Origin: Stenotrophomonas indicatrix
GTDB lineage: Bacteria > Pseudomonadota > Gammaproteobacteria > Xanthomonadales > Xanthomonadaceae
Length of the DNA stretch: 64,000 bases
Reading direction: 5' to 3'
Assembly (NCBI RefSeq): GCF_002750975.1
Contig: NZ_PEJS01000001.1
Location: 3,906,001-3,970,000 of the forward strand
Both the position numbers and the translations under genes were made by a program. The notes under the pieces are model-generated. The model had not been told where the DNA came from and did not search any database. It worked only from the letters and a program-made list of their open reading frames with translations. Positions 9,788-22,955 of this stretch are shown one piece after another. Each line of letters begins with the position of its first letter. Position 1 is the first letter of the stretch.

Positions 9788-10681
9788 TCAACGCAGCGCC
9801 AGATCCACGGCGATACCGGCAAACAGCGCGGCACCCACCCAGTTGTTGTGCAGGAAGGCCTTGAAGCACGGCCCACGCTCGCGGTTGCGGCAGATCCAGA
9901 ACTCGTACACCACCAGCAGCGTCGCCACCGCTACGCCGGCCAGGTAGTACCCACCCAGCCCGCCGCGCACGCCCACCAGCGTCATCGTGGCCAGGAACAG
10001 CGCGTACAGCACGCCCTGGATGACCAGGTCCAGGTCGCCGAACAGGATCGCAGTGGAGTGCGAACCCATCTTCAGGTCGTCTTCGCGGTCGACCATGGCG
10101 TACCAGGTGTCGTAGGCGGTGGACCACAGGATGTTGCCGGCATACAGCAGCCAGCCCAGCATCGGCACCTCGCCCTGCACGGCGGCGAAGGCCATCGGGA
10201 TGCCCCAGCCGAAGGACATGCCCAGGTAGACCTGCGGCAGATGGGTGTAGCGCTTCAGGTAGGGATAGCTGGCCGCCAGGAACACGCCGATGAAGCTCAG
10301 GGCGATGGTCAGGCCGTTCAGGGTCAGCACCAGGCCGAAGGCCACCAGCATCAGCACCGCGAACAGCGCCAGCGCCGCACGGCCGCTGATCGCACCAGTC
10401 GCCAGCGGTCGCGCCTTGGTGCGCTCCACGTGCGGGTCGAGCCAGCGGTCGGCGTAGTCGTTGATGACGCAACCGGCCGAGCGGGTCAGCCAGACGCCAG
10501 CGGTGAACACGAACAGGGTCCACAGCGGCGGCAGGCCGCCAGCGGCCAGCCACAACGCCCACCAGGTGGGCCACAGCAGCAGCAGCGTGCCGATCGGGCG
10601 ATCGGCGCGCATCAGGGACCAGTAATGCCGCCAACGCGGCGTCGGCGCCGGATGCGGCGCGGAAAGGGGGGTATCAGCCAT
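9788..10681 (-). CDS. ubiA: 4-hydroxybenzoate octaprenyltransferase
   Basis: 297 residues, an integral inner-membrane prenyltransferase. The first Asp-rich magnesium-diphosphate site is [12 protein letters not shown] and the second is in [13 protein letters not shown]; eight to nine hydrophobic helices surround them. It joins the polyprenyl tail to 4-hydroxybenzoate, the first membrane step of ubiquinone synthesis. The start MADTPLSAP fits the usual length. It stands alone on the minus strand, divergent from tRNA-Arg, with a SMAG pair behind it. ubiC is not in the window. Confidence 0.95.
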
Positions 10682-10830
10682 GACACTAGGATACTCCTGT
10701 GCCTTCGGACCGACTTTGCCGGCGGGGGGAGATTTGTGCGGCGAAACTGGATAGAATGCCCATCCCGCACCGCCTCATTGCGTTGCGATGCCCGCCCCGG
10801 CCCTGGCCGACGGCGCGGCGGTTCCACCAC

Positions 10831-10907
10831 GCGCTCGTAGCTCAGCCGGATAGAGTAGTGGCTTCCGAAGCCATTGGTCGGGGGTTCGAATCCCTCCGGG
10901 CGCGCCA
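10831..10907 (+). tRNA. tRNA-Arg (anticodon CCG)
   Basis: A 77-nt cloverleaf. The acceptor stem GCGCTCG pairs with CGGGCGC (one T-G wobble), followed by discriminator G and an encoded CCA. The anticodon loop is TTCCGAA, so the anticodon is CCG and reads CGG codons. The T-loop TTCGAAT is present. Accessory toxin DNA begins just downstream, but I could not find a second copy of the tRNA 3' end that would mark an integration site. Confidence 0.95.
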
Positions 10908-11266
10908 TCTTCCCTCAGTCTTCCGTCCTCGCCTGCCACCACGGCATGGCGCGCTGGTCGTGGGTTCATTCGGCTTCCCGATCCCCCGCTGCGGCTCCGT
11001 TGCGCTGAGCTGGAAGGGAATCGAGCGGTAGGCGGAGCCCTGCGCGTCGCGGACGATGATCGAGAATTCCTCCCCAGCGCTGGTCGCGCCGGGCAGAAAC
11101 GCGCCGTCGCCGTCGAACAGCACCGTCACCGGTTAGCCGGGCACGATGGACGTCCTGCTTGGTCATGCTGCAGATCCTCCATTGATGTTCCGCGTGCCGA
11201 TTACTGGATGACCCGGCAGCGGCGGCGAGGCACCTGCACACTGCCGCTGCTCAACTTCTTAGCGCA
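10908..11266 (-). other. Gene-poor stretch after tRNA-Arg with a broken coding remnant
   Basis: No intact gene is supported in these 359 bases. On the minus strand, ATG at 11166 opens MTKQDVHRARLTG; shortly afterwards a different frame carries a protein-like stretch (VTVLFDGDGAFLPG, then EEFSIIVRDAQGSAYRSIPF). A TAA sits just before that frame. This looks like a small gene broken by a frameshift, but the family was not recognised. Confidence 0.35.
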
Positions 11267-11752
11267 CTACAGCGCCGCCGAGCATCGACCGAACACGTTG
11301 GCGGGCTTCTCCCGCAGGCTCACGGCAACCACCCGGTGTTTCTGCTCGCCGCAGCCCCCCATGACCCCATACATGATGAGAAGTCCCTTGTCGTTGACGT
11401 AGCCGATGAACCTGCCATTACCTTCATCCGAAGCGGTCCTGACGAGATAGACGCTCTCCCCGGGGGCTGGCTCCAGGCCACTCAACGGCATTGAACCAAT
11501 CTTCCCTTCAACCTCTGATGCCGATACTGCGACCAGTGAGCTCTTCAACATCCACTCCGCTATGGCGGCTTCACTATCCGGATCAAGCGTGGAAATGCGG
11601 TCAAGCGGCAGAGTCGTTGAATTGCCAGGGAAGATCGCGTCGGATGAAACATCTACCCAGTCCGACCTCCATTCCGTGTGTTGAAATTTGTTGATGCTGC
11701 ACCCGCCCAGCATTGGCAAGACCAGCAGCGCTGCGCGCAAGATGCCAGCCAC
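11267..11752 (-). CDS. Small lipoprotein of unknown function
   Basis: The proposed GTG start gives VAGILRAALLVLPMLGGCS, a short lipoprotein signal with lipobox MLGGC; AAAGG lies 5 bases before it. A longer frame begins at 11896, but its extra 48 residues do not look like a signal or domain. The mature part (about 145 residues) contains an acidic segment with DRISTLDPDSEAAIAEWM and a Cys-containing C-terminus. Its place at the downstream end of the Rhs/immunity region, same strand, makes an envelope immunity role possible, but nothing in the sequence proves it. Confidence 0.5.
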   Translation of the reverse strand: MAGILRAALLVLPMLGGCSINKFQHTEWRSDWVDVSSDAIFPGNSTTLPLDRISTLDPDSEAAIAEWMLKSSLVAVSASEVEGKIGSMPLSGLEPAPGESVYLVRTASDEGNGRFIGYVNDKGLLIMYGVMGGCGEQKHRVVAVSLREKPANVFGRCSAAL

Positions 11753-11928
11753 CGGCCCTTTGATGATGTCCCTTGCTGGGGCACCTGGAATCTCCCTGCA
11801 CTTGCCGCGCCACAGAGCGGCCAGATGCCCGCTGGTGGGCGGACCCACCCGAACGGAATCACTCGCCGATACCCGGCCACGGTGCGTCTCATGCATGCCA
11901 TGCCACTCCTAATTTTCCACACCGGACG

Positions 11929-12297
11929 TCACTGCGAGTCTATCCGCCAGCCCAGGGCCAGGATGTCGAGTGAGCTGGCAGTGGTACAGGTTTCGATGCG
12001 GAAGCACTGAAGCCTTGGCAGCAACACACCCGAGGCCGCCCAGCGCCGTCTGCCATCGGCCAGTAGCTTGCTGTCCTCATCGACATATGCGCGGTCGATC
12101 GTGTCCTCACCCAGGACACCGAAGTTGAGCGCCAATCGTGCGCCGCGGCATTCAAGGAACACCACCCGCGCATTGCGCCCGTCGGGCCAGCGCACGTGGA
12201 CCACTACTTCATCCTGGATGCCCGGATTGCTGCGGTCTACGGACACCGCAGTCAAGATGGCGTCCGACCAGGGCAGTGCGTTGAACTCAAGGATCAT
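11929..12297 (-). CDS. Immunity-like protein, unknown family
   Basis: The ATG at 12297 is preceded by AAGGAGGT at 7 bases, a near-perfect ribosome site, so the longer upstream frame is rejected. 122 residues, soluble, no signal. The N-terminus MILEFNALPWSDAILTAVSV is followed by alternating short strands, then RARLALNFGVLGEDTID. The pattern (hydrophobic-Asp near the start, a beta-sandwich-like middle, an LxLNFG strand) resembles the neighbour at 12371, and the two may be distant paralogues. Small cytoplasmic proteins in tandem behind an Rhs gene are typically immunity proteins; which toxin it would neutralise is unknown. Confidence 0.6.
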   Translation of the reverse strand: MILEFNALPWSDAILTAVSVDRSNPGIQDEVVVHVRWPDGRNARVVFLECRGARLALNFGVLGEDTIDRAYVDEDSKLLADGRRRWAASGVLLPRLQCFRIETCTTASSLDILALGWRIDSQ

Positions 12298-12370
12298 GCG
12301 GGGTACCTCCTTCCTGGCTCTGGCAGCACGTTGGCATAGGTCCATCTCCCGTCCAGAGCCAGCGCTCGCC

Positions 12371-12775
12371 TCATGCTCGAACGTTTCGACTTGTTTGATG
12401 GAGCACCAGTTGCCAATGCTGTGACATGAGGCATGCAATTTCGGCACCGATCGTCGCTTCGATGAGGACAATGCACCCCGTCCCATCGAGTTCATGCGGG
12501 TCCGCAGGGTCCACTCCAAGCAGGGCACACGCACGATCAAACTCGAATGATGCTTCGCGCTCAGTGAAGACACTCAGGTCCAGAATGATGTTCTGCATCG
12601 AGAAGCCATCGATACTGAGGCGGACAATGTCATCGAAGATGACCTCATGCACATATCTTCCGCATTCCGTGGACAGAGAGAGTGCAAGACGGCGGCGATC
12701 TTCAATGCGGAGTCCATCAATGTGCAGATCATGCAGACAGCTCATGCTCCGTCCATCTGGATTTTCGATGTTCAA
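12371..12775 (-). CDS. Immunity-like protein with TTG start
   Basis: The TTG at 12775 is chosen because AGGAGGT lies 7 bases upstream; the next ATG (12745) has no such site. 134 residues, acidic, soluble, no signal. It begins MNIENPDGRSMSCLHDLHID and has a middle strand RYVHEVIFDDIVRLSIDGF, followed by QNIILDLSVFTE. The organisation parallels the protein at 11929. Only about 30 bases separate it from the upstream gene, so the small genes are probably co-transcribed. Function unknown; immunity is inferred from location. Confidence 0.6.
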   Translation of the reverse strand: MNIENPDGRSMSCLHDLHIDGLRIEDRRRLALSLSTECGRYVHEVIFDDIVRLSIDGFSMQNIILDLSVFTEREASFEFDRACALLGVDPADPHELDGTGCIVLIEATIGAEIACLMSQHWQLVLHQTSRNVRA

Positions 12776-12805
12776 CAGACAGACCTCCTCAACTGAAAAG
12801 GAAGA

Positions 12806-13135
12806 TCATGCTGTGACGCTGCTTTGAGCGCGCGCGCCAAACACACTGCGGTACCAATAGGCGTCACTGCGCCTGAACCAGGTCGAGAAGGCTTCAGAAT
12901 CGAAAACTTTGAGCTGTTCCATGGCAATACGGTAGCGCTGGAAGAAAGCCAATATGTCACGTAGCACCTCGGCATCCACCCGTCGCTTGTCGACCTGGAT
13001 GTAGATGATCCGGCCCCGGCCAACCACTTCCATGACGCACTCCATCTGATCCAGCCAGCCGAAGAATTGCGCTTCGTCCCGTGGGGAGTAGAACACCACA
13101 CTATCGGCCTGCAGTTCCACCTTTTCCATTTTCAT
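12806..13135 (-). CDS. Small immunity-like protein
   Basis: 109 residues starting MKMEKVELQADSVVFYSP. It has no signal or membrane segment and is rich in aromatics (AQFFGWLDQM, ILAFFQRYRI, AYWYRSVFG). It reads as an alpha/beta single-domain protein. It lies between other small same-strand genes downstream of the Rhs gene, which suggests an orphan immunity protein. The family was not recognised, and no catalytic motif is evident. Confidence 0.55.
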   Translation of the reverse strand: MKMEKVELQADSVVFYSPRDEAQFFGWLDQMECVMEVVGRGRIIYIQVDKRRVDAEVLRDILAFFQRYRIAMEQLKVFDSEAFSTWFRRSDAYWYRSVFGARAQSSVTA

Positions 13136-13314
13136 TGCGCGACCCTCTCCAGTCGAACGATTGCACTTATCATGCCTCTTGTCGGCTCGGCAATATGTGG
13201 GTGCCAGCTCGCCGAGGGGCCATACTCATTGCGATGCTTCTAACACGTGTGTGCTCATCGATGGGTGTCGTCAGCGTCGTCCACACTCGGGAACTTCCCC
13301 CGGCGTGCTGGGAA

Positions 13315-13722
13315 TCAGCCTGACCGGGCGGCACGCTGTACTCGCCGCCAGACCTCGTCCGACATGAAGTTCTTCCACGTTCGGCCAAGCAGCTCACGAA
13401 CAGAAGGGTGCTGCTTTGCCAGGCTCTCCAGCTTCTCGATCTCTGCCTCGCCATGGGCCACCAAGTAGTCCTCCAATGGTCCGGCAGCGAGACTGGATAG
13501 CAGAGGTGCATCCACATCCATCTGCCTGACGGCCTCAATGAATTCCCATCCTCCGTCGGCATCCCGCTGAATGATGTCATCGACAACATCCAGCACCTGC
13601 ATGTGCGATTGCCGCTCACTGGCGCCCATGGGAAGTCGATTGAACTGAACCCATGCTTCGGCGATCGTCTGCGGTCCACCATGCGGCCTTCCGGCTGATT
13701 CAATACTTTTATTTCGATGCAT
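13315..13722 (-). CDS. DUF6869-like protein, probable orphan immunity gene
   Basis: The start is ATG at 13722 (MHRNKSIESAG); an in-frame TTG nine codons earlier is an alternative. 135 residues. The C-terminal two thirds matches what I know of the DUF6869 pattern: WEFIEAV followed by LLSSLAAGPLEDYLVAHG and ending SDEVWRRVQRAA. DUF6869 proteins are small helical proteins often found beside polymorphic toxins. It lies in the row of small same-strand genes behind the Rhs locus. The role is inferred. Confidence 0.65.
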   Translation of the reverse strand: MHRNKSIESAGRPHGGPQTIAEAWVQFNRLPMGASERQSHMQVLDVVDDIIQRDADGGWEFIEAVRQMDVDAPLLSSLAAGPLEDYLVAHGEAEIEKLESLAKQHPSVRELLGRTWKNFMSDEVWRRVQRAARSG

Positions 13723-13759
13723 CCCAGATTTTCCCGGTTGAGAGGCCAAGCGAACAGCT

Positions 13760-14167
13760 TCACCCCACTACAGGAGGATAGATTTCAACTGAGACACCAA
13801 GGCTCAGTTCAAAAATTCTTTTGAGCAAGCTGTGATCAAGCTCAAAACCTCCCAACGCTTCCGTAAAGAGACTTACATAGAACTCCGCCTTCCCACCGCC
13901 ACCGACAATCTCATCCAAGAACCGAGCCTTGGCGGACAGCACATCGCACCACCTACGCAGCTCCTCGTCCAACTCAACACTCGCCTTGCGCACGAGCTGC
14001 ATTGAAACGTACGTTTCCTCGCACAGGCTCCCATCCGAAGATGGCGGGCGTGGATCGCCCACTGTCCTTGAGAATCTGGGCGTCAGACCGAACTCCAACG
14101 CGATATCAGACGCCCGCATGGAGGGGTGCCAGATCCGCAGCGAAATATTCGTTACCTGAATAGACAT
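13760..14167 (-). CDS. DUF4279 protein, probable orphan immunity gene
   Basis: 135 residues. The N-terminus ISLRIWHPSMRASDIALEF, with GLTPRFSRTVGDPR just after it, is the usual DUF4279 opening (a strand, a helix, then a Gly-Asp turn). It ends SLGVSVEIYPPVVG. DUF4279 proteins are common as immunity or immunity-associated genes downstream of Rhs and contact-dependent toxins. No clear Shine-Dalgarno was seen before ATG 14167. It directly follows degraded Rhs fragments, so its original toxin tip may have been lost. Confidence 0.7.
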   Translation of the reverse strand: MSIQVTNISLRIWHPSMRASDIALEFGLTPRFSRTVGDPRPPSSDGSLCEETYVSMQLVRKASVELDEELRRWCDVLSAKARFLDEIVGGGGKAEFYVSLFTEALGGFELDHSLLKRIFELSLGVSVEIYPPVVG

Positions 14168-14545
14168 GAGAGGCGTGGAAGGGTCGCGCTAAATGCTGAG
14201 TACCATCTGCAACCCGTTCTGCAAAACGATCTTTGCGCGATTGAGGTCACATTGATCATCGCCACCGGGTAGCCGCCAGTCAGATTGATGAAACCGTTGT
14301 AGACGTAGGTGAGGGGCAGCCGCTTAAGATCGGCCACCTTCAGGACCTGATCCTACGCTCAACTGGATAGCGCGAAACAGAGTGTGGAGCACGCTACTTC
14401 TTTGAGGTCTCAATCGGCGTGCCCGTCGCACCGTCTTGGGTCTGGGTCAGTCGGCCGAGCGCGTCATAGGCGTACTTGGCTAGCACTTCCGAGCCCGCAC
14501 CGCTCTTCAATTCGGTGATCGAACCGACGGAATCATGGCCATCCC
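14168..14545 (-). pseudogene. Rearranged fragments of an Rhs gene
   Basis: Two pieces of Rhs coding sequence are recognisable. 14411-14530 is about 95% identical by eye to 17824-17943 of the intact Rhs gene (encoding YAYDALGRLTQTQDGATGTP), but then runs into SKK and a stop. About 14270-14355 encodes ADLKRLPLTYVYNGFINLTG, a diverged copy of the TYAYNGFGDLTG repeat encoded near 18600. They are out of order compared with the intact gene and carry no tip or start. They look like leftovers of earlier tip exchanges. Confidence 0.75.
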
Positions 14546-14572
14546 ATCAGAAATGACGACAATTCTTTTGGA

Positions 14573-14779
14573 TCAATTATTTCTTGCCGACTTTGTTATC
14601 CATACCAGGGGCCCGCCCAAAACGTAAAGGACAGCTTTCAGCACCTCGAAGATCTTCTGGCGCCCGCTCAAGGCAACGCTCGCTGAATACTTCTCCCGAA
14701 TCGCGCGCCTCCTGCGTGCGACGCCAACTTTAGCGTCGCTTCGCGAAGTCGAAATCGTTCGTTTTGATTTACTTACCAT
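14573..14779 (-). CDS. Small basic ORF overlapping the end of the coupled membrane-protein gene
   Basis: The ATG lies inside the last codons of the gene at 14769-15149 (11-base overlap, sequence ATGGTAAGTAA). 68 residues: a basic N-terminal half (KSKRTISTSRSD, RRRRAIREKY) and a hydrophobic segment VLKAVLYVLGGPLVWI. It lies in AT-richer DNA. It may be a short membrane-associated protein, the remnant of a lost toxin tip, or chance. No family recognised. Confidence 0.3.
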   Translation of the reverse strand: MVSKSKRTISTSRSDAKVGVARRRRAIREKYSASVALSGRQKIFEVLKAVLYVLGGPLVWITKSARNN

Positions 14780-15149
14780 CAGCCTCATCCATTCCCCGAG
14801 CAACGGCCAAGCTCAGAATTTTTCCGGGAACGATCAGCAGCAGCATATATCCACTCAGCCTCTCAATGCTGCCCTGGAATCCAGCCGCAAGAATAGCCAG
14901 TGTTCCAGCCATCCCGACAGCAGACACCCATCTCCTTGATAATGTGACATTTATCTCGTGCTCGCCCCCATTCATCAGTGGAGCCACACTTTTCAAGACT
15001 AGGAACACCACAACCAAGTTCAGCATCAGCCCAGCGATAACAAGAATGAACATTTTCCAACCTGTCAATGGTGGAAACAGCACGCTCATGAAATCAAGCG
15101 ACGCCAGAACGAAGCATGTCATCAATCTGCTCTTTGTACTTTTCATCAT
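14769..15149 (-). CDS. Membrane protein coupled to the orphan Rhs tip (probable immunity)
   Basis: The ATG at 15149 overlaps the TGA of the orphan Rhs tip as ATGA, the classical layout for translational coupling; a GTG six codons upstream is less likely. 126 residues with three or four hydrophobic segments (for example MFILVIAGLMLNLVVVFLVL, AVGMAGTLAILAAGF, MLLLIVPGKILSLAV). It should sit in the inner membrane. A membrane immunity protein implies that the cognate tip may act on or cross the inner membrane. Base composition is clearly lower in GC than the Rhs core, as expected for an exchanged module. Confidence 0.65.
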   Translation of the reverse strand: MMKSTKSRLMTCFVLASLDFMSVLFPPLTGWKMFILVIAGLMLNLVVVFLVLKSVAPLMNGGEHEINVTLSRRWVSAVGMAGTLAILAAGFQGSIERLSGYMLLLIVPGKILSLAVARGMDEADGK

Positions 15150-15943
15150 TTGACCTTGCACCAGCACTCCTCAGCCGCTTCGGCGAATTTCATCGCTTCG
15201 ACGCCCAAGCTTAGCAAGCCCAAATTGCGTCCAATGACTCGAAAAAGCTGATTTAGGCTCTTGTTAGCTTGGATGCCCGTTCTAATTTGAGATTGTTCTC
15301 TAAGATTCCTTCCCCATCGATCAAGTTCCTGAAGCCTTGCGTTGGCAGCGGCATCTGCCCTCCACGTGTGCACCTCAGTCGCCGCTGCAGCCGTGCTCAT
15401 CACCGCAGAGGCTGAATCCAGAGAATGGGCACCCTCAGTGAACGCTTTGATTGTTCCAACTCCGGGCGTCAGATTTAGAGCAGAATCGAGGATTGCCGCC
15501 TCCACGCACGCGTCAGAGGCCCGAGGCTCACCCCCGATGTACGCCCCCATGGGTCCAACGCTCTGCAAACCCTCTGGATCAGCGTAGCTCACCGGATTGC
15601 CATGTACATAGGCATAGGTGCTTACGCCCCCTTCCAACCCAATCGGATCGCTCTGCGAGTACCGCCCCACTCCCGGGTCGTATTCCCGCTGGTAGTTGTA
15701 GAACAAGCCACTCGCATCGGTGGCCTGCTGGCCCGGGAAGCGCAGCGCCAGATCAAACACCACGCCATCCCCATCGGGATCATTGGCCGGCGCCTGATCG
15801 CCAAACACCTCACTCTTGTTGCTCCACTCCCAGATCGCAACATCACGCAACGGGTCGATCACTACGCGCGGTGTCCCCAGGTGATCGGGCTGGATGTACG
15901 CCAGCTCCGGCACGCCCGAGGCTGGTGTCTGGATCAACGCCAC
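15146..15943 (-). CDS. Orphan Rhs C-terminal tip with shared core end
   Basis: Open frame from a GTG at 15943; 265 residues if translated. The first 125 or so are almost the same as the end of the Rhs core in the intact gene: AYIQPDHLGTPRVVID, WEWSNKSEVFGD, NYQREYDPGVGRYSQSDP and the boundary YADPEGL. The following 140 residues are different and AT-richer: SDACVEAAILDSALNLTPGV, then a long helical region (LQELDRWGRNLREQSQ) and an end of EECWCKVK. This is a displaced tip module: silent cassettes of this kind can recombine into the main Rhs gene through the shared core. No signal peptide or intact core precedes it. The toxic activity cannot be named. Confidence 0.7.
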   Translation of the reverse strand: MALIQTPASGVPELAYIQPDHLGTPRVVIDPLRDVAIWEWSNKSEVFGDQAPANDPDGDGVVFDLALRFPGQQATDASGLFYNYQREYDPGVGRYSQSDPIGLEGGVSTYAYVHGNPVSYADPEGLQSVGPMGAYIGGEPRASDACVEAAILDSALNLTPGVGTIKAFTEGAHSLDSASAVMSTAAAATEVHTWRADAAANARLQELDRWGRNLREQSQIRTGIQANKSLNQLFRVIGRNLGLLSLGVEAMKFAEAAEECWCKVK

Positions 15944-16020
15944 CGGGTAGTTGTCCAGCCAGATCGCCTGTTGCTGCGCTTGCCCGGTCGTCGAGTAGTT
16001 GCCGACCCACTGCCCGGGGC
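15630..16020 (-). repeat. Direct repeat shared with 17130-17520 of the intact Rhs gene
   Basis: About 390 bases read as well over 90% identical in the two places, both on the minus strand, encoding the last conserved part of the Rhs core. The distance is about 1.5 kb. Recombination between them would replace the intact tip and its membrane-protein gene with the orphan pair. A shorter third copy is at 14411-14530 (matching 17824-17943). Confidence 0.8.
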
Positions 16021-16253
16021 TTCGTCATAGACAGTGACCTACGCATCGCCACTGGCTGGCACACATTGCCTGCGGCATCTTGGTTGCGCGCCTGAACGTG
16101 CACGGCATCAGGCGATGGCCGTCAGCCGGATAGGGTGTAGCTCGCCGTCCCCGCCGACGTGACCAGCGAGGTGCGGTCACCGGTGGCGTCGTAGCCATAA
16201 GGGTGCCCGTCGCACCGTCCTGGGTTTGGGTCAGTTGGCCGAGCGCGGCGCGC
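15944..16253 (-). pseudogene. Degraded Rhs core leading into the orphan tip
   Basis: This stretch matches 17520-17880 of the intact Rhs gene in pieces: ATGDRTSLVTSAGTASYT, ARNQDAAGN, then a jump of about 130 bases to the CAGTGGGTCGGCAACTACTC region. A deletion and frameshifts break the reading frame. It fades out at about 16253, next to the stop of the membrane-protein gene at 16301. Confidence 0.75.
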
Positions 16254-16300
16254 TATGGATACCCCAGCACACCCCGCAATGGAAGCGCTTAGACGCACAT

Positions 16301-16552
16301 CTATTCCGCCTTCGCCCGCCGAAGCCGAAGCAAGCCGACAGACCCAACTTTCCACATAACAAAAGCTATGGCGAGGGAGATCACAACGAATGCCAGACCT
16401 GCAAATCCATACCGACCGCCCTGATTCGAAAGGTCAATTACAACAAAAATAAGCATTACTAGATTAGCAGTAGCTATAAGGCAAGCCACCACCCTCATCG
16501 CCCAGAAAAACATGGTGTAGTAAGCCTGAAGAAAATTCTTCCATCCAGTCAT
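16301..16552 (-). CDS. Small membrane protein coupled to the intact Rhs gene (probable immunity)
   Basis: The ATG begins one base after the Rhs stop (TGA T ATG), so translation is probably coupled. 83 residues: MTGWKNFLQAYYTMFFWAMR followed by two strong membrane helices (LVMLIFVVIDL, GLAFVVISLAIAFVMW) and a basic tail. It is low in GC compared with the Rhs core. By position it is the immunity protein for the 170-residue Rhs tip. No family recognised. Confidence 0.65.
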   Translation of the reverse strand: MTGWKNFLQAYYTMFFWAMRVVACLIATANLVMLIFVVIDLSNQGGRYGFAGLAFVVISLAIAFVMWKVGSVGLLRLRRAKAE

Positions 16553-16553
16553 A

Positions 16554-19500
16554 TCAAGGACACCCGCACCCTTTGCCAGTTGGCGTAGCCATCTGCCCTG
16601 AGATCGTATACCCGGATCCAGTCATTGCACCAAATCCAACACCAGGAAGCGGTGGGATGGAGATGGATCCACCACTCATCTTATCTCTTTCCATATCTTC
16701 CAACGAGAAGAGGCGACGCAGCCAAGCCCAGTTGTCGCCCTCCTTATTTCCTTCCAACAGGTTGGTGGATCCTTGAACGGAGCCGCCAATGGACGGCCCC
16801 CAGCCGCCGGCCACTTCAGAGTATCGATAAACGCCCCAAGATCTGTCTGGCAACGGGCCAGAACTCTCCGAGGCACTTATTGATGTACCTGCACCTAGAT
16901 ACGCCCCCCCGCCAAGCATTCCGCTTATCTGCAATGAACCATAGATTTGGTAGCAGGAAACATTGCCCAAATTTTTTGGAATCGATACCCCGACGTTTAT
17001 CGATCCAGTCACTGCCACACCTGGGCCAGCCCCCCCCGCCGAACCCCCAACCCCGACTTGCTTATTCAATCCCAAGGGGTCCGTGAATTCGACGGAGTTG
17101 CCTGTAGCGTAAATAAAGGTCGACACTCCCCCCTCCAACCCAATCGGATCACTCTGCGAGTACCGCCCCACCGCCGGCTCGTACTCCCGCTGGTAGTTGT
17201 AGAACAAGCCACTCGCATCCGTCGCCTGCTGGCCCGGGAAGCGCAGCGCCAGCTCAAACGCCACACCGTCCCCGTCCGGGTCATTGGCCGGTGCCTGATC
17301 GCCAAACACCTCGCTCTTGTTACTCCACTCCCAGATCGCGACATCGCGCATCGGGTCGATCACCACACGCGGCGTACCCAGGTGATCGGGCTGGATGTAC
17401 GCCAGCCCCGGCACGCCCGTGGCGGGTGTCTGGATCAACGCCACCGGGTAGTTGTCCAGCCAGATCGCCTGATGCTGCGCTTGCCCGGTCGCCGAGTAGT
17501 TGCCGACCCACTGCCCGGCTTCGTCATAGACAGTGATCTGCGCATCACCACTGGCTGGCGCACGCAGCACGCGCTCACCGCGGTGGTTGTAACCGTAACT
17601 CTCCACGACAGCAGCACCCTGCTTCACCGCACTCATGCGATTGGCATCGTTGTAGGCGAACGTCTTGCTGCCAATGCTGGTGGTGTTGCCTGCGGCATCC
17701 TGGTTGCGCGCCTGACCGTCCACGGCAATCAGTCGATGGCTGTCAGCCGGATAGGTATAGCTTGCGGTCCCGGCCGACGTGGTCAGCGAGGTGCGGTTGC
17801 CGGTGGCGTCGTAGCCATAGGTTTCAATCGGCGTGCCCGTCGCACCGTCTTGGGTCTGGGTCAGTCGGCCGAGCGTGTCATAGGCGTACTTGGCCAGCAC
17901 TTCCGAGCCCGCACCGCTCTTCAGCTCGGTGATCGAGCCGACGGGATCGTAGCCGTAGCCCAGTGACAGACCGCCCGCCGCGGGGTCATGCACCGCCTGC
18001 GGACGGTAGTCCAAATCCAGCGGGCGCTGCAGCTGGCGGCCGTTTCCGTAGGTCCAGCCGGTCGCCGGCCCGAAGGCTGCGTGGGTCACGTTGTTGACCA
18101 CCACCTGCCGGGCCTGTCCCGGGCGGGTCAGGCCAATCTGGCTGATCCGCCCCTGGGCGTCGCGCACATAGTCGGCGACGCTGCCGTCCGGGTAGGTCAA
18201 CGCGGTCAGGCGACCGGACTTGCTGTAGGCGTAGCGCAGCGTGCTGGCTACACCGTTGATCGTCTGCACCTTGCGGGTGACCTGGCCAAAGCGGTCATGG
18301 CAGTACGCGGTGCTGCCATTGGCGTGCAGCACCTGGCCCAGGCGACCCTTGGCGAAACGCTCGTCGCTGGCACATACGGCTGGTGCGGTGTCGTAGTGAT
18401 AGCCCACGTCCAGGTTGGGATCCGGATAGGCAATGCCGACCAGTCGATTGAGCGCGTCGTAGCTGTAGGTGGCGGTCACGCCGCGCGCATCAGTGCGAGT
18501 CTTGCGGTTGCCAGCGGCGTCAACAGTGAAAGTAGTGTTCCCGCTGTCGGGGCTGACCTGTCCGGTCAGATCACCAAAGCCGTTGTAGGCGTAGGTGGTG
18601 TGCAGGCCCTTGGGATCGGTCACCTGGGTGACCTGATCCAGCGCGTTGTACTGGCTGCGGATTTCCGCGGCAACACCGCCCACGTCCTGCAGGGTCTGCG
18701 CCAGCCGGTTCAGCGGATCGTACTGCTGGGTCGTCTCACGCTGCAGGGCATCGGTGACCGACTGCGGATTGCCATTGGCGTCGTACGCAAAGCCGGTGGC
18801 ATTGTTGCCGGCATCCTTCAGCGTGGTCAGCTGCCCGAGTGTGTTGTAGACACGGGCCAGCGTGCGGCGCAGCGTGCCATCCGCATCGACCGTGTTCTCC
18901 TGCAGGCGGTTGCCGGCGTTGTCCAGAGTGTAGTGAATGGTGTTGTCGGCACTGTCGGCAATGTCCGTCAGCCGCTGCGCGGCGTCGTAGACGTAAGTGA
19001 CGCTGCTGCCGTCGGGTTCGGTGGTCCGTTGTACCTGGCCAGTCGGCCAGTAGCTGATCTGTGTAGCCCGGTCCTCGGCTGTGGTAGCACCGCGCACGGT
19101 GACGGAGGTCGGCCAGCCGCGGGCATGGTAGGTGTAATCGGTGACCACGCCGTTGGCGTCCTTCGCCGACAACGGCCGCCCGAGTGCGTCGTAGGCCAGG
19201 GTCTCGACCGTCTGGCCCAGCGCATTGGTCACGCTGCGCAGGTCGCCCTTGCGATAACTGCAGGCACCACTGGTCGCGCATCCCGCGTCGTCCGCGGTGT
19301 AGTAGGCATAGGTGGAGACATCCGCCACATCACTGCGCGGGCCATCCACGCTACGCAGCAGTCCCACCAGCGGGCACTCCGGGCCCTCTGCCTCACAGTA
19401 GGTCTGCGTGGTGATGCGGGTGTCACCGGTCACCATGTCGCGCACGGTGATGGTGGTTGGCTGGAGGCGCGCATTGCGTGCGATGCGAATCTCACGGTTA

Positions 19501-21317
19501 CCGACGGTCTGCTGCACCAGCCGATTGCTGTCCATGGCGACGCGCGTCTCGCTGACGCGCTGATCCGGAGTACCGGCCGCTTCGGTGGTGGTGGTCACGC
19601 TGACGGCGCCTACGGCAGCATCGCTGGCCTCGGCATAGGCGTAGCTGGTGACGACACCACGACGATCGGTCACCGACTGCAGCCGACGCCGGAAATCGGT
19701 GCCCTCGGGCAGATAGGCGCGAGTGGTGCTGCCGTTGCTTTCGGTGATGCCATTGACCTTGCGCGGAAGGCCGCTGGTACCGCTGGCAGTCAATGCGTAG
19801 GTGCTCTGCTTGCCCAGTGCGTCGGTGACGATGGTGGTGCCTGCCTGGGTGTACTCCAAGCGCACGCCATCAATGCCCACGTCGGCCTGACTGCAATCGC
19901 CGGAATGGCGGCTGCAGGTGACCCGCCCCTTGGCGTCGTAGCCGAACCAGCTGTAGCGACGGGTGTCTTCGGCGGTCACGCCGGTCAGATAGGCCGGGAA
20001 GCGGGCGTCCTCATAGTGATACGTGCGGCTGGCACCGTCTGCGTAGGTCGCGCTGATCAATTCGCCGGCGGGGGAGTAGGCGTAGCTCACCACAGGCTGG
20101 CCGGCAACCACCAGGGCCGAGATCAGTGAATCGTCGCCCTGCACCAAGTACTGGACGTCCACGCGCCGACCGGTTGAATGGGTGATGCTGAGCAGGCGGC
20201 CACGGCTGTCGTGTGCATAGATCAGCGACGTTCCGTCTTCGAAATCGCGGCGCTGCATCAAGCCAGCGGCATCAAAATGAATGCGCTCTCCGGCACGTGA
20301 AAGTTGCCAGTTGGTGCCCTGCTGGACCGCGCGATCGCCGCTTCCGTCCATGGCTTCGTAGCTTGCCCCCACTTTCTGGAATGCGGTCTGCCCGCCATCG
20401 GCGCCGATCAGCCCAACTTTCAGTTCAGGGCTGGGAGGGAAGGTGGCGTCGTCTACGCCTGCGGTAAGCCGCAGATTGTGGGAATGGGTCCAGCCCGTAC
20501 CCAACGCGCCGCCCGCCGTGCTTGTCAGGGAGTGATAGTGGCGTTCGAAGCTCACCCATCCAAGGTTGAAATCCGGCTCAGGCTGGGATTTATCGCCAGT
20601 GGTCGGATCACACGGGTTACCAACAGGACACTGCTGCGGCGGCAGCGGCGCGCTTGTGTAGGAGAGCATGGGCGACATGTGCGGCTCGTCCTGCCGGACC
20701 AGAGAGCACATCTGCAGGGCCTCATTCCACGTCAGGGACGGTCGATTCGGACAAAGCGCCGTTCTGGCCCGGCGCACATGCTCCCACCCCACTATCGACG
20801 AGCATTCTTGAGTGCTCTGGTGATAGAAGTTCAAGGTGTAATGAAAATCTTTCTCCTCGTTGGTGACGCTACCGTCGTCGCCCCTGCCAAGTCCAAGGAG
20901 CTCCACCCAAGGATCCTCCGTGAGGGTAGTCGCCGGGCACTGCGGGTCGCTGACGCGGGTAGCGAGGATCACGCTACGAATCTGATCTTCGGATGAGTAC
21001 TCCTGCCCTGAGTGGGTGTAGACCCAGTCGGTAGTAACGATCTTCTCGGGTCTCACCCGGTAATCGTAGATGACCTTCTTTCCAAGGACGCGTTGGCGTT
21101 TGACATGCCAATCGAAGGGTTTGTCCTTCTCGTACTGGGAAAAGAGCGACTTGATGTCCTTCTGCACCGCCGCTTCGGTGGCTCGCGGCTGGCCCATCGA
21201 CAGATAGCTCTCCCACTTCTTCTGCACCTCCTGCGCCTGCACCGCAGTGGTACCCACGCACCCCAGCGCGGCCATCGCCAGCACTGCGCACGACAGACCC
21301 TTCAATCGCTTCAACAT
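16554..21317 (-). CDS. Rhs repeat polymorphic toxin with Sec signal and variable tip
   Basis: 1587 residues; AGGAGA lies 7 bases before the start. Residues 1-29 are a signal peptide (cleavage near AVQAQE); an ALGC could also be read as a weak lipobox. Residues 30-235 are a Cys-containing N-terminal domain of unknown type. A DUF6531-like element follows (NPCDPTTGDKSQPEPDF, about 235-300), then YD/Rhs repeats to about 1400 (for example GFGDLTGQVSPDSGNTTF). The core ends with the RYSQSDPIGLEGG and FTDPLGL motifs, after which a 170-residue Gly/Ser-rich tip begins (about 1418; 16554-17066) and ends GKGCGCP. Rhs shells encapsulate a C-terminal toxin. No PAAR or VgrG is present, and the Sec signal argues against loading on a T6SS. 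The tip has lower GC than the core and its activity is unknown. Confidence 0.88.
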   Translation of the reverse strand: MLKRLKGLSCAVLAMAALGCVGTTAVQAQEVQKKWESYLSMGQPRATEAAVQKDIKSLFSQYEKDKPFDWHVKRQRVLGKKVIYDYRVRPEKIVTTDWVYTHSGQEYSSEDQIRSVILATRVSDPQCPATTLTEDPWVELLGLGRGDDGSVTNEEKDFHYTLNFYHQSTQECSSIVGWEHVRRARTALCPNRPSLTWNEALQMCSLVRQDEPHMSPMLSYTSAPLPPQQCPVGNPCDPTTGDKSQPEPDFNLGWVSFERHYHSLTSTAGGALGTGWTHSHNLRLTAGVDDATFPPSPELKVGLIGADGGQTAFQKVGASYEAMDGSGDRAVQQGTNWQLSRAGERIHFDAAGLMQRRDFEDGTSLIYAHDSRGRLLSITHSTGRRVDVQYLVQGDDSLISALVVAGQPVVSYAYSPAGELISATYADGASRTYHYEDARFPAYLTGVTAEDTRRYSWFGYDAKGRVTCSRHSGDCSQADVGIDGVRLEYTQAGTTIVTDALGKQSTYALTASGTSGLPRKVNGITESNGSTTRAYLPEGTDFRRRLQSVTDRRGVVTSYAYAEASDAAVGAVSVTTTTEAAGTPDQRVSETRVAMDSNRLVQQTVGNREIRIARNARLQPTTITVRDMVTGDTRITTQTYCEAEGPECPLVGLLRSVDGPRSDVADVSTYAYYTADDAGCATSGACSYRKGDLRSVTNALGQTVETLAYDALGRPLSAKDANGVVTDYTYHARGWPTSVTVRGATTAEDRATQISYWPTGQVQRTTEPDGSSVTYVYDAAQRLTDIADSADNTIHYTLDNAGNRLQENTVDADGTLRRTLARVYNTLGQLTTLKDAGNNATGFAYDANGNPQSVTDALQRETTQQYDPLNRLAQTLQDVGGVAAEIRSQYNALDQVTQVTDPKGLHTTYAYNGFGDLTGQVSPDSGNTTFTVDAAGNRKTRTDARGVTATYSYDALNRLVGIAYPDPNLDVGYHYDTAPAVCASDERFAKGRLGQVLHANGSTAYCHDRFGQVTRKVQTINGVASTLRYAYSKSGRLTALTYPDGSVADYVRDAQGRISQIGLTRPGQARQVVVNNVTHAAFGPATGWTYGNGRQLQRPLDLDYRPQAVHDPAAGGLSLGYGYDPVGSITELKSGAGSEVLAKYAYDTLGRLTQTQDGATGTPIETYGYDATGNRTSLTTSAGTASYTYPADSHRLIAVDGQARNQDAAGNTTSIGSKTFAYNDANRMSAVKQGAAVVESYGYNHRGERVLRAPASGDAQITVYDEAGQWVGNYSATGQAQHQAIWLDNYPVALIQTPATGVPGLAYIQPDHLGTPRVVIDPMRDVAIWEWSNKSEVFGDQAPANDPDGDGVAFELALRFPGQQATDASGLFYNYQREYEPAVGRYSQSDPIGLEGGVSTFIYATGNSVEFTDPLGLNKQVGVGGSAGGAGPGVAVTGSINVGVSIPKNLGNVSCYQIYGSLQISGMLGGGAYLGAGTSISASESSGPLPDRSWGVYRYSEVAGGWGPSIGGSVQGSTNLLEGNKEGDNWAWLRRLFSLEDMERDKMSGGSISIPPLPGVGFGAMTGSGYTISGQMATPTGKGCGCP

Positions 21318-21545
21318 CCCTGTTCTCCTTCCTGGACGGTTACCGCACCGGGAGGAACGAAGGCGCTCGGGCAGCCATTGCCCTTTCCCGCCCTGCTTCG
21401 GATCGTCCCTGTTCCGGATTGCGGCGTGGCCGCATGGGGACGTTATCTCCGATGTGGGTTACGCATTCAAGTCAGAAAGTGTGGAACCGGTTGAATTTCA
21501 GAGTTTTCTGATAACCGCCAACCATCGATAGCGGCCCGAAGATAC

Positions 21546-21572
21546 AAAAACGCCGGGCAGTGCCCGGCGTTT
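21546..21572 (-). terminator. Terminator after the GH109-type gene
   Basis: AACGCCGG...CCGGCGTT with a short loop; on the minus strand it is followed by a run of T (TTTTTG). It lies about 30 bases after the stop at 21600 and separates the GalNAc genes from the Rhs gene on the same strand. The remaining bases to 21317 must hold the Rhs promoter; no clear consensus was seen. Confidence 0.8.
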
Positions 21573-21599
21573 CCGTCACAGCGTGGAAGGGTGTAGACC

Positions 21600-22955
21600 T
21601 CAGTACTTTCCGTCAAACGCAAAAATCGGCTTGCGCTTCTGCCACAGGCCCGCAGTGAAATCCGGGAACTCCAGCGTCTGGAAACTGTTGGCGATCGACT
21701 GCTCGCTCAACGGGGTAATCGCGCTCCACGTCACTGCGTCGTAGATGTCGATCGGCATCGGCGCCTTGGCCTTCAGCGCTTCCACGAACGCATGGATCAC
21801 GAACCAGTCCATGCCGCCATGGCCGGCGCTGGCAGCGGTATCGGCATTCTGCTTCCACAGCGGATGTTCGTACTGGTCCTGGTACTTCTTGAACTCTTCC
21901 CACTGGTGCGGCGGGCTGCGGCCTTCGATGTGGATCGAATGGTTCACGTCCATCCACAGGCCCTTGGTGCCCTGCACGCGGAAGCCCATCGAATACGGTC
22001 GCGGCAGCGAGGTATCGTGCTGCAGCAGGATGGTCTCGCCGTTCTCGCAGGCCAGCGTGGTGGTGACGATGTCACCGAGCTTGAACTTCACCTTGGTGCT
22101 CGGATGGGTGGTGCCGCCGCTCTTGGCTACGGTGTATTCGTGCAGGCCACGCGCCTTGGTGGCGAATGCGTTGATGTGGGTGAAGCGGTTGCCGCGGTTG
22201 ATGCCGGTATACATCGCGCACGGGCCGATGCCGTGGCTGGGGTAGAGCTCACCATTGCGCTCCACCGAATGTTCGGTGCGCCAGCGTGCTTCGCTCCAGC
22301 CTTTGGGGCCGAATTCCACGCCGCTGTCGTAGGGCTGGTTCGGGTCGCCGGAATTGAACTTCACCCCGCGCAGGTCGTGCTGGTAACCGGCCTGCAGGTG
22401 CACCAGTTCGCCGAACAGACCCTGCCGCACCATCTGCAGGGTCGCCATCACGTCACGGCGGTAACAGACGTTTTCCAGCAGCATGTACGGGGTGCCGGTG
22501 CTCAGCTGGGTCTTCAGCACGTCCCAGTGATCCTGCAGGGTGATGCCGGCCACCACTTCGCAGCCCACGGCCACGCCGGCCTGCATCGCGGCAATCGCCA
22601 TCGGTGCGTGGTACTCCCACGGCGTGGCGATGATCACGCCATCAATGCCCTTCTGCTCCAGCAGGCGTTTCCATGCGTTGATGTCGCGGTCCTGACCGTA
22701 GGTCTTCGGCGCCGGCTTGCCCGCCTTGCTGACCATCTCCACGGCGCGGCCGAGCATGATCGGCTCGATATCGCACAGGGCAACGACCTCCACGTCGTCG
22801 CGGCGCACCAGTTCCTTCAGCAGCACCAGGCCACGCATGCCGGTACCGATCACGGCCAGGCGTACCTTGCGGCCACGTGCCCATGCCGGGGTCTGCGGCA
22901 GCAGGCTGCTGGCGGCGACAGCGGCGCTGGCCGCGATGAATTCCCTACGCTTCAT
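21600..22955 (-). CDS. GH109-type Gfo/Idh/MocA protein, probable alpha-N-acetylgalactosaminidase
   Basis: The start at MKRREFIAASAA is chosen because it begins a twin-arginine signal (cleavage near TPAWA) and AGGAG lies 10 bases upstream; 451 residues. After the signal comes a Rossmann NAD-binding motif, AVIGTGMRG, then EVVALCDIEP and IIATPWEYHAPMA of the Gfo/Idh/MocA fold, and a C-terminal domain with NGELYPSHGIGPCAMY. GH109 enzymes use bound NAD+ in a redox-elimination mechanism to release terminal alpha-GalNAc. Export folded with cofactor by Tat fits this mechanism. The neighbours (receptor, GH31, aga genes) strongly support GalNAc as the substrate; a different sugar oxidoreductase remains possible. 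Confidence 0.78.
   Translation of the reverse strand: MKRREFIAASAAVAASSLLPQTPAWARGRKVRLAVIGTGMRGLVLLKELVRRDDVEVVALCDIEPIMLGRAVEMVSKAGKPAPKTYGQDRDINAWKRLLEQKGIDGVIIATPWEYHAPMAIAAMQAGVAVGCEVVAGITLQDHWDVLKTQLSTGTPYMLLENVCYRRDVMATLQMVRQGLFGELVHLQAGYQHDLRGVKFNSGDPNQPYDSGVEFGPKGWSEARWRTEHSVERNGELYPSHGIGPCAMYTGINRGNRFTHINAFATKARGLHEYTVAKSGGTTHPSTKVKFKLGDIVTTTLACENGETILLQHDTSLPRPYSMGFRVQGTKGLWMDVNHSIHIEGRSPPHQWEEFKKYQDQYEHPLWKQNADTAASAGHGGMDWFVIHAFVEALKAKAPMPIDIYDAVTWSAITPLSEQSIANSFQTLEFPDFTAGLWQKRKPIFAFDGKY

What the first reader, a model, noticed from the sequence alone, without database searches (positions are those of the whole stretch)
10908..21317. Rhs toxin locus with displaced tips and a row of orphan immunity genes
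Seen: one intact Rhs gene, one orphan tip sharing more than 90% of the core end, older fragments, and at least seven small same-strand genes behind them, two of them coupled to tips by TGA-T-ATG or ATGA. Known: Rhs and CDI loci keep silent tip/immunity cassettes. Inferred: the strain has exchanged tips repeatedly and kept immunity to former toxins. No integrase or transposase is visible, so recombination through the core repeats is the likely engine.
Basis: partly seen in the sequence, partly recalled or inferred. Interest (0 to 1): 0.75.

Follow-up and report, generated by a model that had tools for sequence, protein, structure and literature searches.

The report
Rhs toxin locus archiving old immunity genes
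A Stenotrophomonas maltophilia-complex bacterium carries one large toxin gene whose tip has been swapped over time, and behind it sits a row of small genes whose relatives in other strains lie beside other toxin tips and probably guard against them; the arrangement is clear, but of a kind already known from other bacteria.

Summary
Behind an intact 1587-aa Rhs gene (21317-16554, minus strand) lie two further core-end copies, one with a displaced tip, and eight small same-strand genes. The genome belongs to the Stenotrophomonas maltophilia complex.

The same site holds 9 distinct tip families in 11 loci. Homologues of S1, S4 and S6 sit directly behind main Rhs tips in congeners (S6 at 94% in G058). 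S3's homologue follows an Ntox37 tip in G086. A DUF6869 gene (S2 family) follows an Rhs in another genus. S5 was never seen in that position. Of 40 main-position neighbour genes, 33 have a displaced homologue at another locus. S1, S3, S5 and S6 show fewer amino-acid changes than neutrality predicts; S2 does not.

The 'core recombination' engine is half right: left ends are homologous core, right junctions are not core-to-core.

No TssC/VipB match was found in the genome, and the Rhs has no PAAR match but a signal-peptide-like start, so delivery is unknown. This is a good new example of sequential toxin displacement (Rhs/CDI orphans; V. cholerae immunity arrays), not a new kind. No protection was tested.

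The parts
16554..21317 (-). Rhs gene, 1587 aa: signal-peptide-like N-terminus, DUF6531, RHS repeats, core end; main tip (TIP1) is residues 1417-1587
   Evidence: hydrophobic N-terminal stretch
16557..17069 (-). TIP1, main-position variable tip (171 aa, Gly-rich, no Pfam/NCBIfam match)
   Evidence: same tip in Stenotrophomonas sp. S48 at 77%; truncated relative displaced in G059
16301..16552 (-). I1, 83 aa, two hydrophobic segments; putative cognate immunity of TIP1
   Evidence: coupling read; hydropathy; displaced homologues in G059 (60%) and G011 (51%)
15569..16250 (-). second core-end copy with about 121 nt missing inside
15146..15568 (-). TIP2, displaced tip (140 aa), read as the end of ORF 15943-15146
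   Evidence: P0003/P0004 relatives at 81%; decayed C-terminus in G021
14769..15149 (-). I2, about 126 aa, hydrophobic segments; putative cognate immunity of TIP2
   Evidence: 68-72% homologue in G021
14405..14540 (-). third core scrap (core residues 1122-1166); shares its I2-to-core junction with G021; joined at 14405/14406 to the older array
13760..14167 (-). S1, 135 aa, DUF4279-like (below the Pfam cut-off here); homologues are the first gene behind main tips in G056 and G031
13315..13749 (-). S2, DUF6869 protein (longest ORF 144 aa); a DUF6869 gene follows an Rhs tip in G269, another genus
12806..13135 (-). S3, 109 aa; a 55% homologue follows an Ntox37 tip in G086
12371..12775 (-). S4, 134 aa; homologues are the first gene behind main tips in G009 and G084
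11929..12297 (-). S5; found only in the genus in the search made (3 of 198 family genomes, own included), at Rhs loci, never as first gene behind a main tip
   Evidence: start inferred from where homologues begin
11267..11743 (-). S6, about 158 aa, lipobox-like LGGC; 94% to the first gene behind the main tip of G058, 61% in G037
   Evidence: lipobox read by eye, motif recalled
10831..10907 (+). tRNA-Arg (CCG), distal border of the array

Best explanation
This is a polymorphic Rhs toxin locus in which incoming [core end - tip - immunity] modules have replaced the active tip several times. Each newcomer joins the resident gene through homologous core at its left end. Its right end is joined to the old core or array without evident homology, pushing the old core end, tip and immunity gene downstream. 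Displaced toxin parts then decay or are deleted, while immunity genes tend to be kept, giving a row of orphan immunity genes towards tRNA-Arg. Shown here: fixed locus, swapped tips, displaced modules, homology of S1, S3, S4 and S6 to tip-adjacent genes elsewhere, and tip-adjacent position of I1 and I2. Inferred: the order of events, the cause of retention (protection against relatives that still use those tips), and any toxicity or protection.
For: In the eight syntenic loci the flank proteins are 96-98% and the cores 78-92% identical (ubiA lies outside the stretch fetched for G021). 9 tip families among 11 syntenic loci, and 1.4-11 kb between Rhs stop and ubiA in the 10 loci where it could be measured. 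Direct tip neighbours: S1 homologues in G056/G031, S4 in G009/G084, S6 in G058 (94%) and G037; S3 homologue behind an Ntox37 tip, 1.1e-25; S2 family behind an Rhs in another genus. Across 40 main loci, 33 neighbour genes have a sense-strand homologue at another locus; 104 sense hits, 0 antisense. All 10 other genomes with an S6 homologue (of 90 others searched) carry it at an Rhs locus, G002 at only 28%. G065 carries S1, S2, S3, S5, S6 (79-96%) behind a different main tip/immunity pair, with 94% DNA identity starting at 14406. G021 shares the I2-to-core(1122) junction. Fewer nonsynonymous changes than neutral for S1, S3, S5, S6 and I2 (P from 0.024 to 3.6e-9).
Against: S2 shows no constraint between window and G065 (14.5 of 19 changes nonsynonymous). 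S5 is never the first gene behind a tip. S1- and S2-family genes also occur with no core end nearby. No remnant of the G058 or G037 tip was found upstream of S6, and matches of 39 tips of other strains to the array are no better than reversed-tip controls, so the array holds no direct trace of most lost toxins. No homologue of G065's X immunity gene was found in the window, so immunity is not always kept. Only 10 of 40 main loci show a displaced core piece downstream at over 50% identity.
Confidence: 0.85

Rival explanations
1. Whole-block import: a strain received the Rhs 3' end together with a ready-made immunity array by ordinary homologous recombination through core and flank, so the array records other lineages' history rather than this strain's own successive toxins.
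For: G065 and the window share the S1-S6 block with uneven divergence (94% then 87%), and no S4 was found in G065. Kirchberger et al. describe this route in V. cholerae (PMC5361080 section 13). Neighbour genes of Rhs loci elsewhere in the chromosome turn up in arrays of this site (for example the L069 gene at 85% in L040).
Against: It does not explain how arrays first form. The displaced [core end - TIP2 - I2] module and the core scrap show local displacement events.
Confidence: 0.3
2. The distal small genes are a variable gene island at a tRNA-Arg hotspot, unrelated to Rhs immunity.
For: The array abuts tRNA-Arg; DUF4279 and DUF6869 relatives exist with no core end within 1.5 kb.
Against: S1, S3, S4 and S6 homologues sit directly behind Rhs tips; S6 was at an Rhs locus in 10 of 10 other genomes with it; no integrase match among the proteins scanned; no direct repeat of 25 nt or more involving the tRNA in 10000-22000.
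Confidence: 0.07
3. The displaced tip module is a reservoir that can be recombined back into the main gene (silent cassette) rather than debris.
For: TIP2 and I2 are open and coupled; switching-in of an orphan module is reported in Salmonella (Koskiniemi et al., as cited in PMC5361080 section 13).
Against: The adjoining core copy has lost about 121 nt. TIP2 matched 2 of 394 other family genomes: a G021 fragment, and a 35% match in G408 that begins at base 248 of its contig and was not examined. P0004 (81%) is only a partial protein on a 2.5-kb contig.
Confidence: 0.25

Closest known systems
V. cholerae T6SS immunity gene arrays (Kirchberger et al. 2017, PMC5361080; abstract and section 13 read)
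   Same: One active effector followed by several orphan immunity genes that match effector neighbours in other strains; proposed left end by homology, right end by illegitimate recombination.
   Different: Here the carrier is an Rhs protein with a signal-peptide-like start and no PAAR match, in a genome with no TssC/VipB match; displaced core ends remain visible.
Orphan CdiA-CT/cdiI and rhs-CT/rhsI modules (Poole et al. 2011, PMC3150448; abstract and section 11 read)
   Same: Displaced core end + tip + immunity module behind a full-length gene; tips fused to full-length genes in other bacteria; DPxGL border.
   Different: The window adds a longer row of small genes without toxin parts.
Orphan immunity genes of gut Bacteroidales (PMC12247911; title and start of abstract seen in a search listing; the rest recalled)
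   Same: Orphan immunity genes kept without cognate toxins.
   Different: Recalled as lying on mobile elements away from the toxin gene; here they sit behind the Rhs gene.
S. rhizophila PAAR-Rhs Tse6 operon with additional immunities (PMC13340143; passages read)
   Same: Same genus, Rhs toxin followed by two cognate immunities and further genes in a low-GC stretch.
   Different: T6SS PAAR-Rhs in a vgrG operon; the window's Rhs has no PAAR match.

Membership tests
Rhs polymorphic toxin | RHS/YD repeats and RHS-associated core domain | tested here: met
   PF05593 1.7e-65, TIGR03696 1.4e-17
Rhs polymorphic toxin | variable C-terminal tip after a DPxGL border | tested here: met
   tips of 40 loci fall into 26 families at E 1e-5; DPLGL and DPEGL borders read; motif as stated in PMC3150448
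Rhs polymorphic toxin | small immunity gene directly downstream | tested here: met
   all 40 main loci have an ORF longer than 60 codons starting within 30 nt behind, or up to 40 nt before, the Rhs stop; immunity itself not tested
Orphan rhs-CT/rhsI module | core end + tip + immunity gene displaced behind a full-length gene | tested here: met
   14769-16250
Orphan rhs-CT/rhsI module | same tip in main position elsewhere | tested here: inconclusive
   for the displaced TIP2 only partial proteins; for TIP1, which is in main position here, one full-length Rhs elsewhere
T6SS-delivered Rhs effector | PAAR domain or T6SS machinery in the genome | tested here: not met
   no PAAR match; no PF05943 match in the own genome, E. 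coli control rings. One T6SS component only was tested.
Orphan immunity array by sequential displacement | orphan genes homologous to effector-adjacent genes of other strains | tested here: met
   S1, S4, S6, S3; S2 only in another genus; S5 not met
Orphan immunity array by sequential displacement | orphan immunity proteins protect against the cognate toxin | not testable with these tools
   needs co-expression

The most novel reading that the evidence does not exclude
A Sec-signalled, T6SS-independent Rhs family of Stenotrophomonas runs a genus-wide trade in tips: at least two chromosomal Rhs loci exchange modules, and each strain keeps a layered archive of immunity genes under purifying selection against toxins that its relatives currently deploy, delivered by an export route not yet known.
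Probability: 0.35. Interest if true: 0.6.

Novelty: new member of a known kind. Interest (0 to 1): 0.42.

Why it matters
It extends the sequential-displacement model to a multidrug-resistant genus and to an Rhs protein in a genome where no T6SS sheath gene was found (one component tested). It gives testable immunity-toxin pairings across strains (E301, D457 and EA1 share the site). It also points to likely immunity families that had only DUF labels, or none, in Pfam and NCBIfam.

Tried and rejected
Tip remnants in the array: of 39 tips of other strains, the best forward match (E 0.044) was no better than the best reversed-tip match (E 0.044). A suggestive stretch upstream of S6 had no DNA support (score 19 against a shuffled mean of 18), so I dropped it.

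Reading the 13 nt at 14406 as the last codons of a lost X immunity gene: identical to the end of G065's gene, but G086's version of that gene ends with different residues. It could equally be a junction inside G065, so I do not claim it.

Micro-homology at the right-hand junctions was not tested.

Structure prediction of TIP1 and TIP2 was not obtained: the machine was busy at each of eight tries (TIP1; TIP2). Sequence search of solved structures gave one match each for TIP1 (E 0.67) and TIP2 (E 0.97), taken as chance, and none for S6. PADLOC gave no match for nine proteins. PHROGs gave one, an unnamed family matching the core part of the displaced ORF.

The search for related loci in genome contigs found only three relatives, all S. 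maltophilia; most comparison genomes are therefore unnamed G handles.

Papers: the listings of searches (15 of 134, 15 of 30, 12 of 31 and 10 of 68 papers shown) showed no paper on immunity arrays behind this Rhs locus in S. maltophilia; the rest of those hits was not seen, and most subscription papers are not held. PMC10732056, PMC11893273, PMC13340143 and PMC13055248 were seen as passages only.
Full report
WHAT IS THERE. All features except the tRNA are on the minus strand. The Rhs gene 21317-16554 encodes 1587 aa with DUF6531, RHS repeats and the RHS core domain. Its first residues look like a Sec signal peptide (hydrophobic stretch; no signal predictor was used). The variable tip TIP1 starts after a DPLG border. 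One base after its stop begins I1 (83 aa, two hydrophobic segments). A second core-end copy follows (about 16250-15569, 88-93% in blocks, about 121 nt missing inside), ending in TIP2, with I2 overlapping TIP2's stop by ATGA. A 136-nt core scrap lies at 14540-14405 (93%). Then come S1-S6 up to tRNA-Arg 10831-10907. S1 is weakly DUF4279 (0.0032, below the cut-off) and S2 is DUF6869 (3.5e-24); S3-S6 have no Pfam or NCBIfam match at E 1. GC is 51-63% in the array against 64-71% in most flanking windows.

WHERE. The window is G000:C1:3906001-3970000. A relative of the Rhs N-terminus at 92-94% is in S. maltophilia E301, D457 and EA1; equal contig lengths identify these as G017, G059 and G008, whose loci share both flanks.

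THE SITE IN RELATIVES. The first Rhs search covered 61 genus genomes (49 with a match; its list of matches was cut); the N-terminal search covered the 91 genus genomes held (32 with a match). Both counts include the own genome. I fetched 50 Rhs regions (20, 20, 10), chosen from those lists; not every listed place was fetched. A main Rhs with tip was found in 39 of these 50 plus the window (40 in all); the other 11 were not used as main loci. Eleven loci, the window included, have the oxidoreductase flank at over 80% identity, 10 of them also ubiA within the fetched stretch. They hold 9 tip families (single linkage, E 1e-5), and the Rhs-stop-to-ubiA distance runs from 1.4 to 11 kb. In the eight such loci, flank proteins are 96-98% and cores 78-92% identical. 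Tip exchange on a fixed core is therefore seen directly.

THE SMALL GENES ELSEWHERE. As the first gene behind a main tip: S1 homologues in G056 (35%) and G031 (31%), both above the DUF4279 cut-off; S4 homologues in G009 and G084 (37-38%), and in G008 as a later ORF 231 nt behind the stop; S6 homologues in G058 (94%) and G037 (61%). In G086, in a run of core pieces, a 55% S3 homologue follows a 160-aa tip with an Ntox37 domain at 1.1e-25. In G269, another genus of the family, a DUF6869 gene (1.4e-12) overlaps the end of an Rhs. S5 is never in this position. It recurs behind the main Rhs in 10 fetched loci at other chromosomal places, where the Rhs N-terminus is more distant, and in G065 at the window's site; a search of 198 family genomes found it in 2 others, both near core ends. 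I1 is displaced in G059, behind a core scrap and a truncated TIP1 relative, and in G011. I2 was found in 1 of 90 other genus genomes, G021.

GENERAL TEST. For the 40 main loci I searched each neighbour gene against the downstream arrays of the other loci (the whole locus where no main Rhs was found). 33 of 40 had a homologue; all 104 hits were on the Rhs sense strand, none antisense. Part of this is a gene family found in many of these loci (the L077/L078 family, about 35%), and the 40 loci include related strains and several loci of one genome, so the figure is descriptive.

RESULTS AGAINST. S1: matches in 22 of 90 other genus genomes; several, at 28-38%, have no core end within 1.5 kb, and one 18-kb stretch in G059 shows no Rhs match. 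S2: of 18 other family genomes with a match, 2 had a core end within 1.5 kb. S3: 2 of 9. S4: 8 of 90 other genus genomes, 6 at Rhs loci, G076 beside a tip scrap 89% like the G084 tip, and G029 in a cluster with in-frame stops and no core. S6: 10 of 90 others, all at Rhs loci.

SELECTION. Between window and G065, nonsynonymous changes were 6 of 13 (S1), 12.5 of 26 (S3), 33.7 of 61 (S5) and 10 of 29 (S6), below an assumed neutral share of 0.75 (P 0.024, 0.0015, 0.0008, 5e-6). S2 gave 14.5 of 19 (P 0.53). These are simple pairwise tests; part of the divergence may predate displacement.

MECHANISM. G065 carries S1, S2, S3, S5 and S6 behind another tip/immunity pair (X); DNA identity of 94% to the window starts at 14406, where the core scrap ends. 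G021 shares the stretch from the end of TIP2 through I2 into the core scrap (82.6% over 826 nt), so that junction is older than the window strain or was transferred as a block. The right-hand joins (I1 to core near residue 1148, I2 to core at 1122, core scrap to array) are not core-to-core; micro-homology there was not tested. This fits homology-facilitated illegitimate recombination as proposed for V. cholerae arrays (PMC5361080 section 13) better than simple recombination between core repeats. The order X, then TIP2, then TIP1 is the simplest reading but is not proven. X immunity has no homologue in the window, so retention is not a rule.

TOXINS AND DELIVERY. TIP1 and TIP2 have no family match, and only chance-level matches to solved structures. 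Their putative immunity proteins look like membrane proteins by hydropathy, so a target at the envelope is a guess. The own genome has no TssC/VipB match, and the Rhs has no PAAR match.

VERDICT. A clear case of a known kind, in a carrier whose export route is open.

Noticed in passing
G000:C1:949167-950036 (L057 8895-10172): A second, truncated Rhs core end in an open frame of 425 codons, followed by an open frame of 195 codons, elsewhere in the same genome (core 43-52% identical).
   Followed up: partly
window 11148-11151: About 286 nt present in G065 and G058 are missing here; the stretch may belong to a gene found in the arrays of several other strains at this site, but that link was not checked.
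   Followed up: partly
G059:C1:4616945-4617331 and similar places in several congeners: A stand-alone DUF4279-like gene at what looks like a fixed site away from Rhs.
   Followed up: partly
G029:C13:34600-37400 (L171): S3, S4 and S1 homologues in a row, with in-frame stops in the last two, and no Rhs core found: apparently a decayed array without its toxin gene.
   Followed up: partly
G054:C16:28879-48700 (L050, L088): A broken main Rhs followed by a run of many displaced core ends over about 20 kb, longer than in the window.
   Followed up: partly
G037 main tip (L039:12054-12512): The tip beside an S6 homologue carries a HEAGH stretch like that of zinc metalloproteases (seen; motif recalled); the G065 tip, of the same tip family, has weak metallopeptidase matches.
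   Followed up: no
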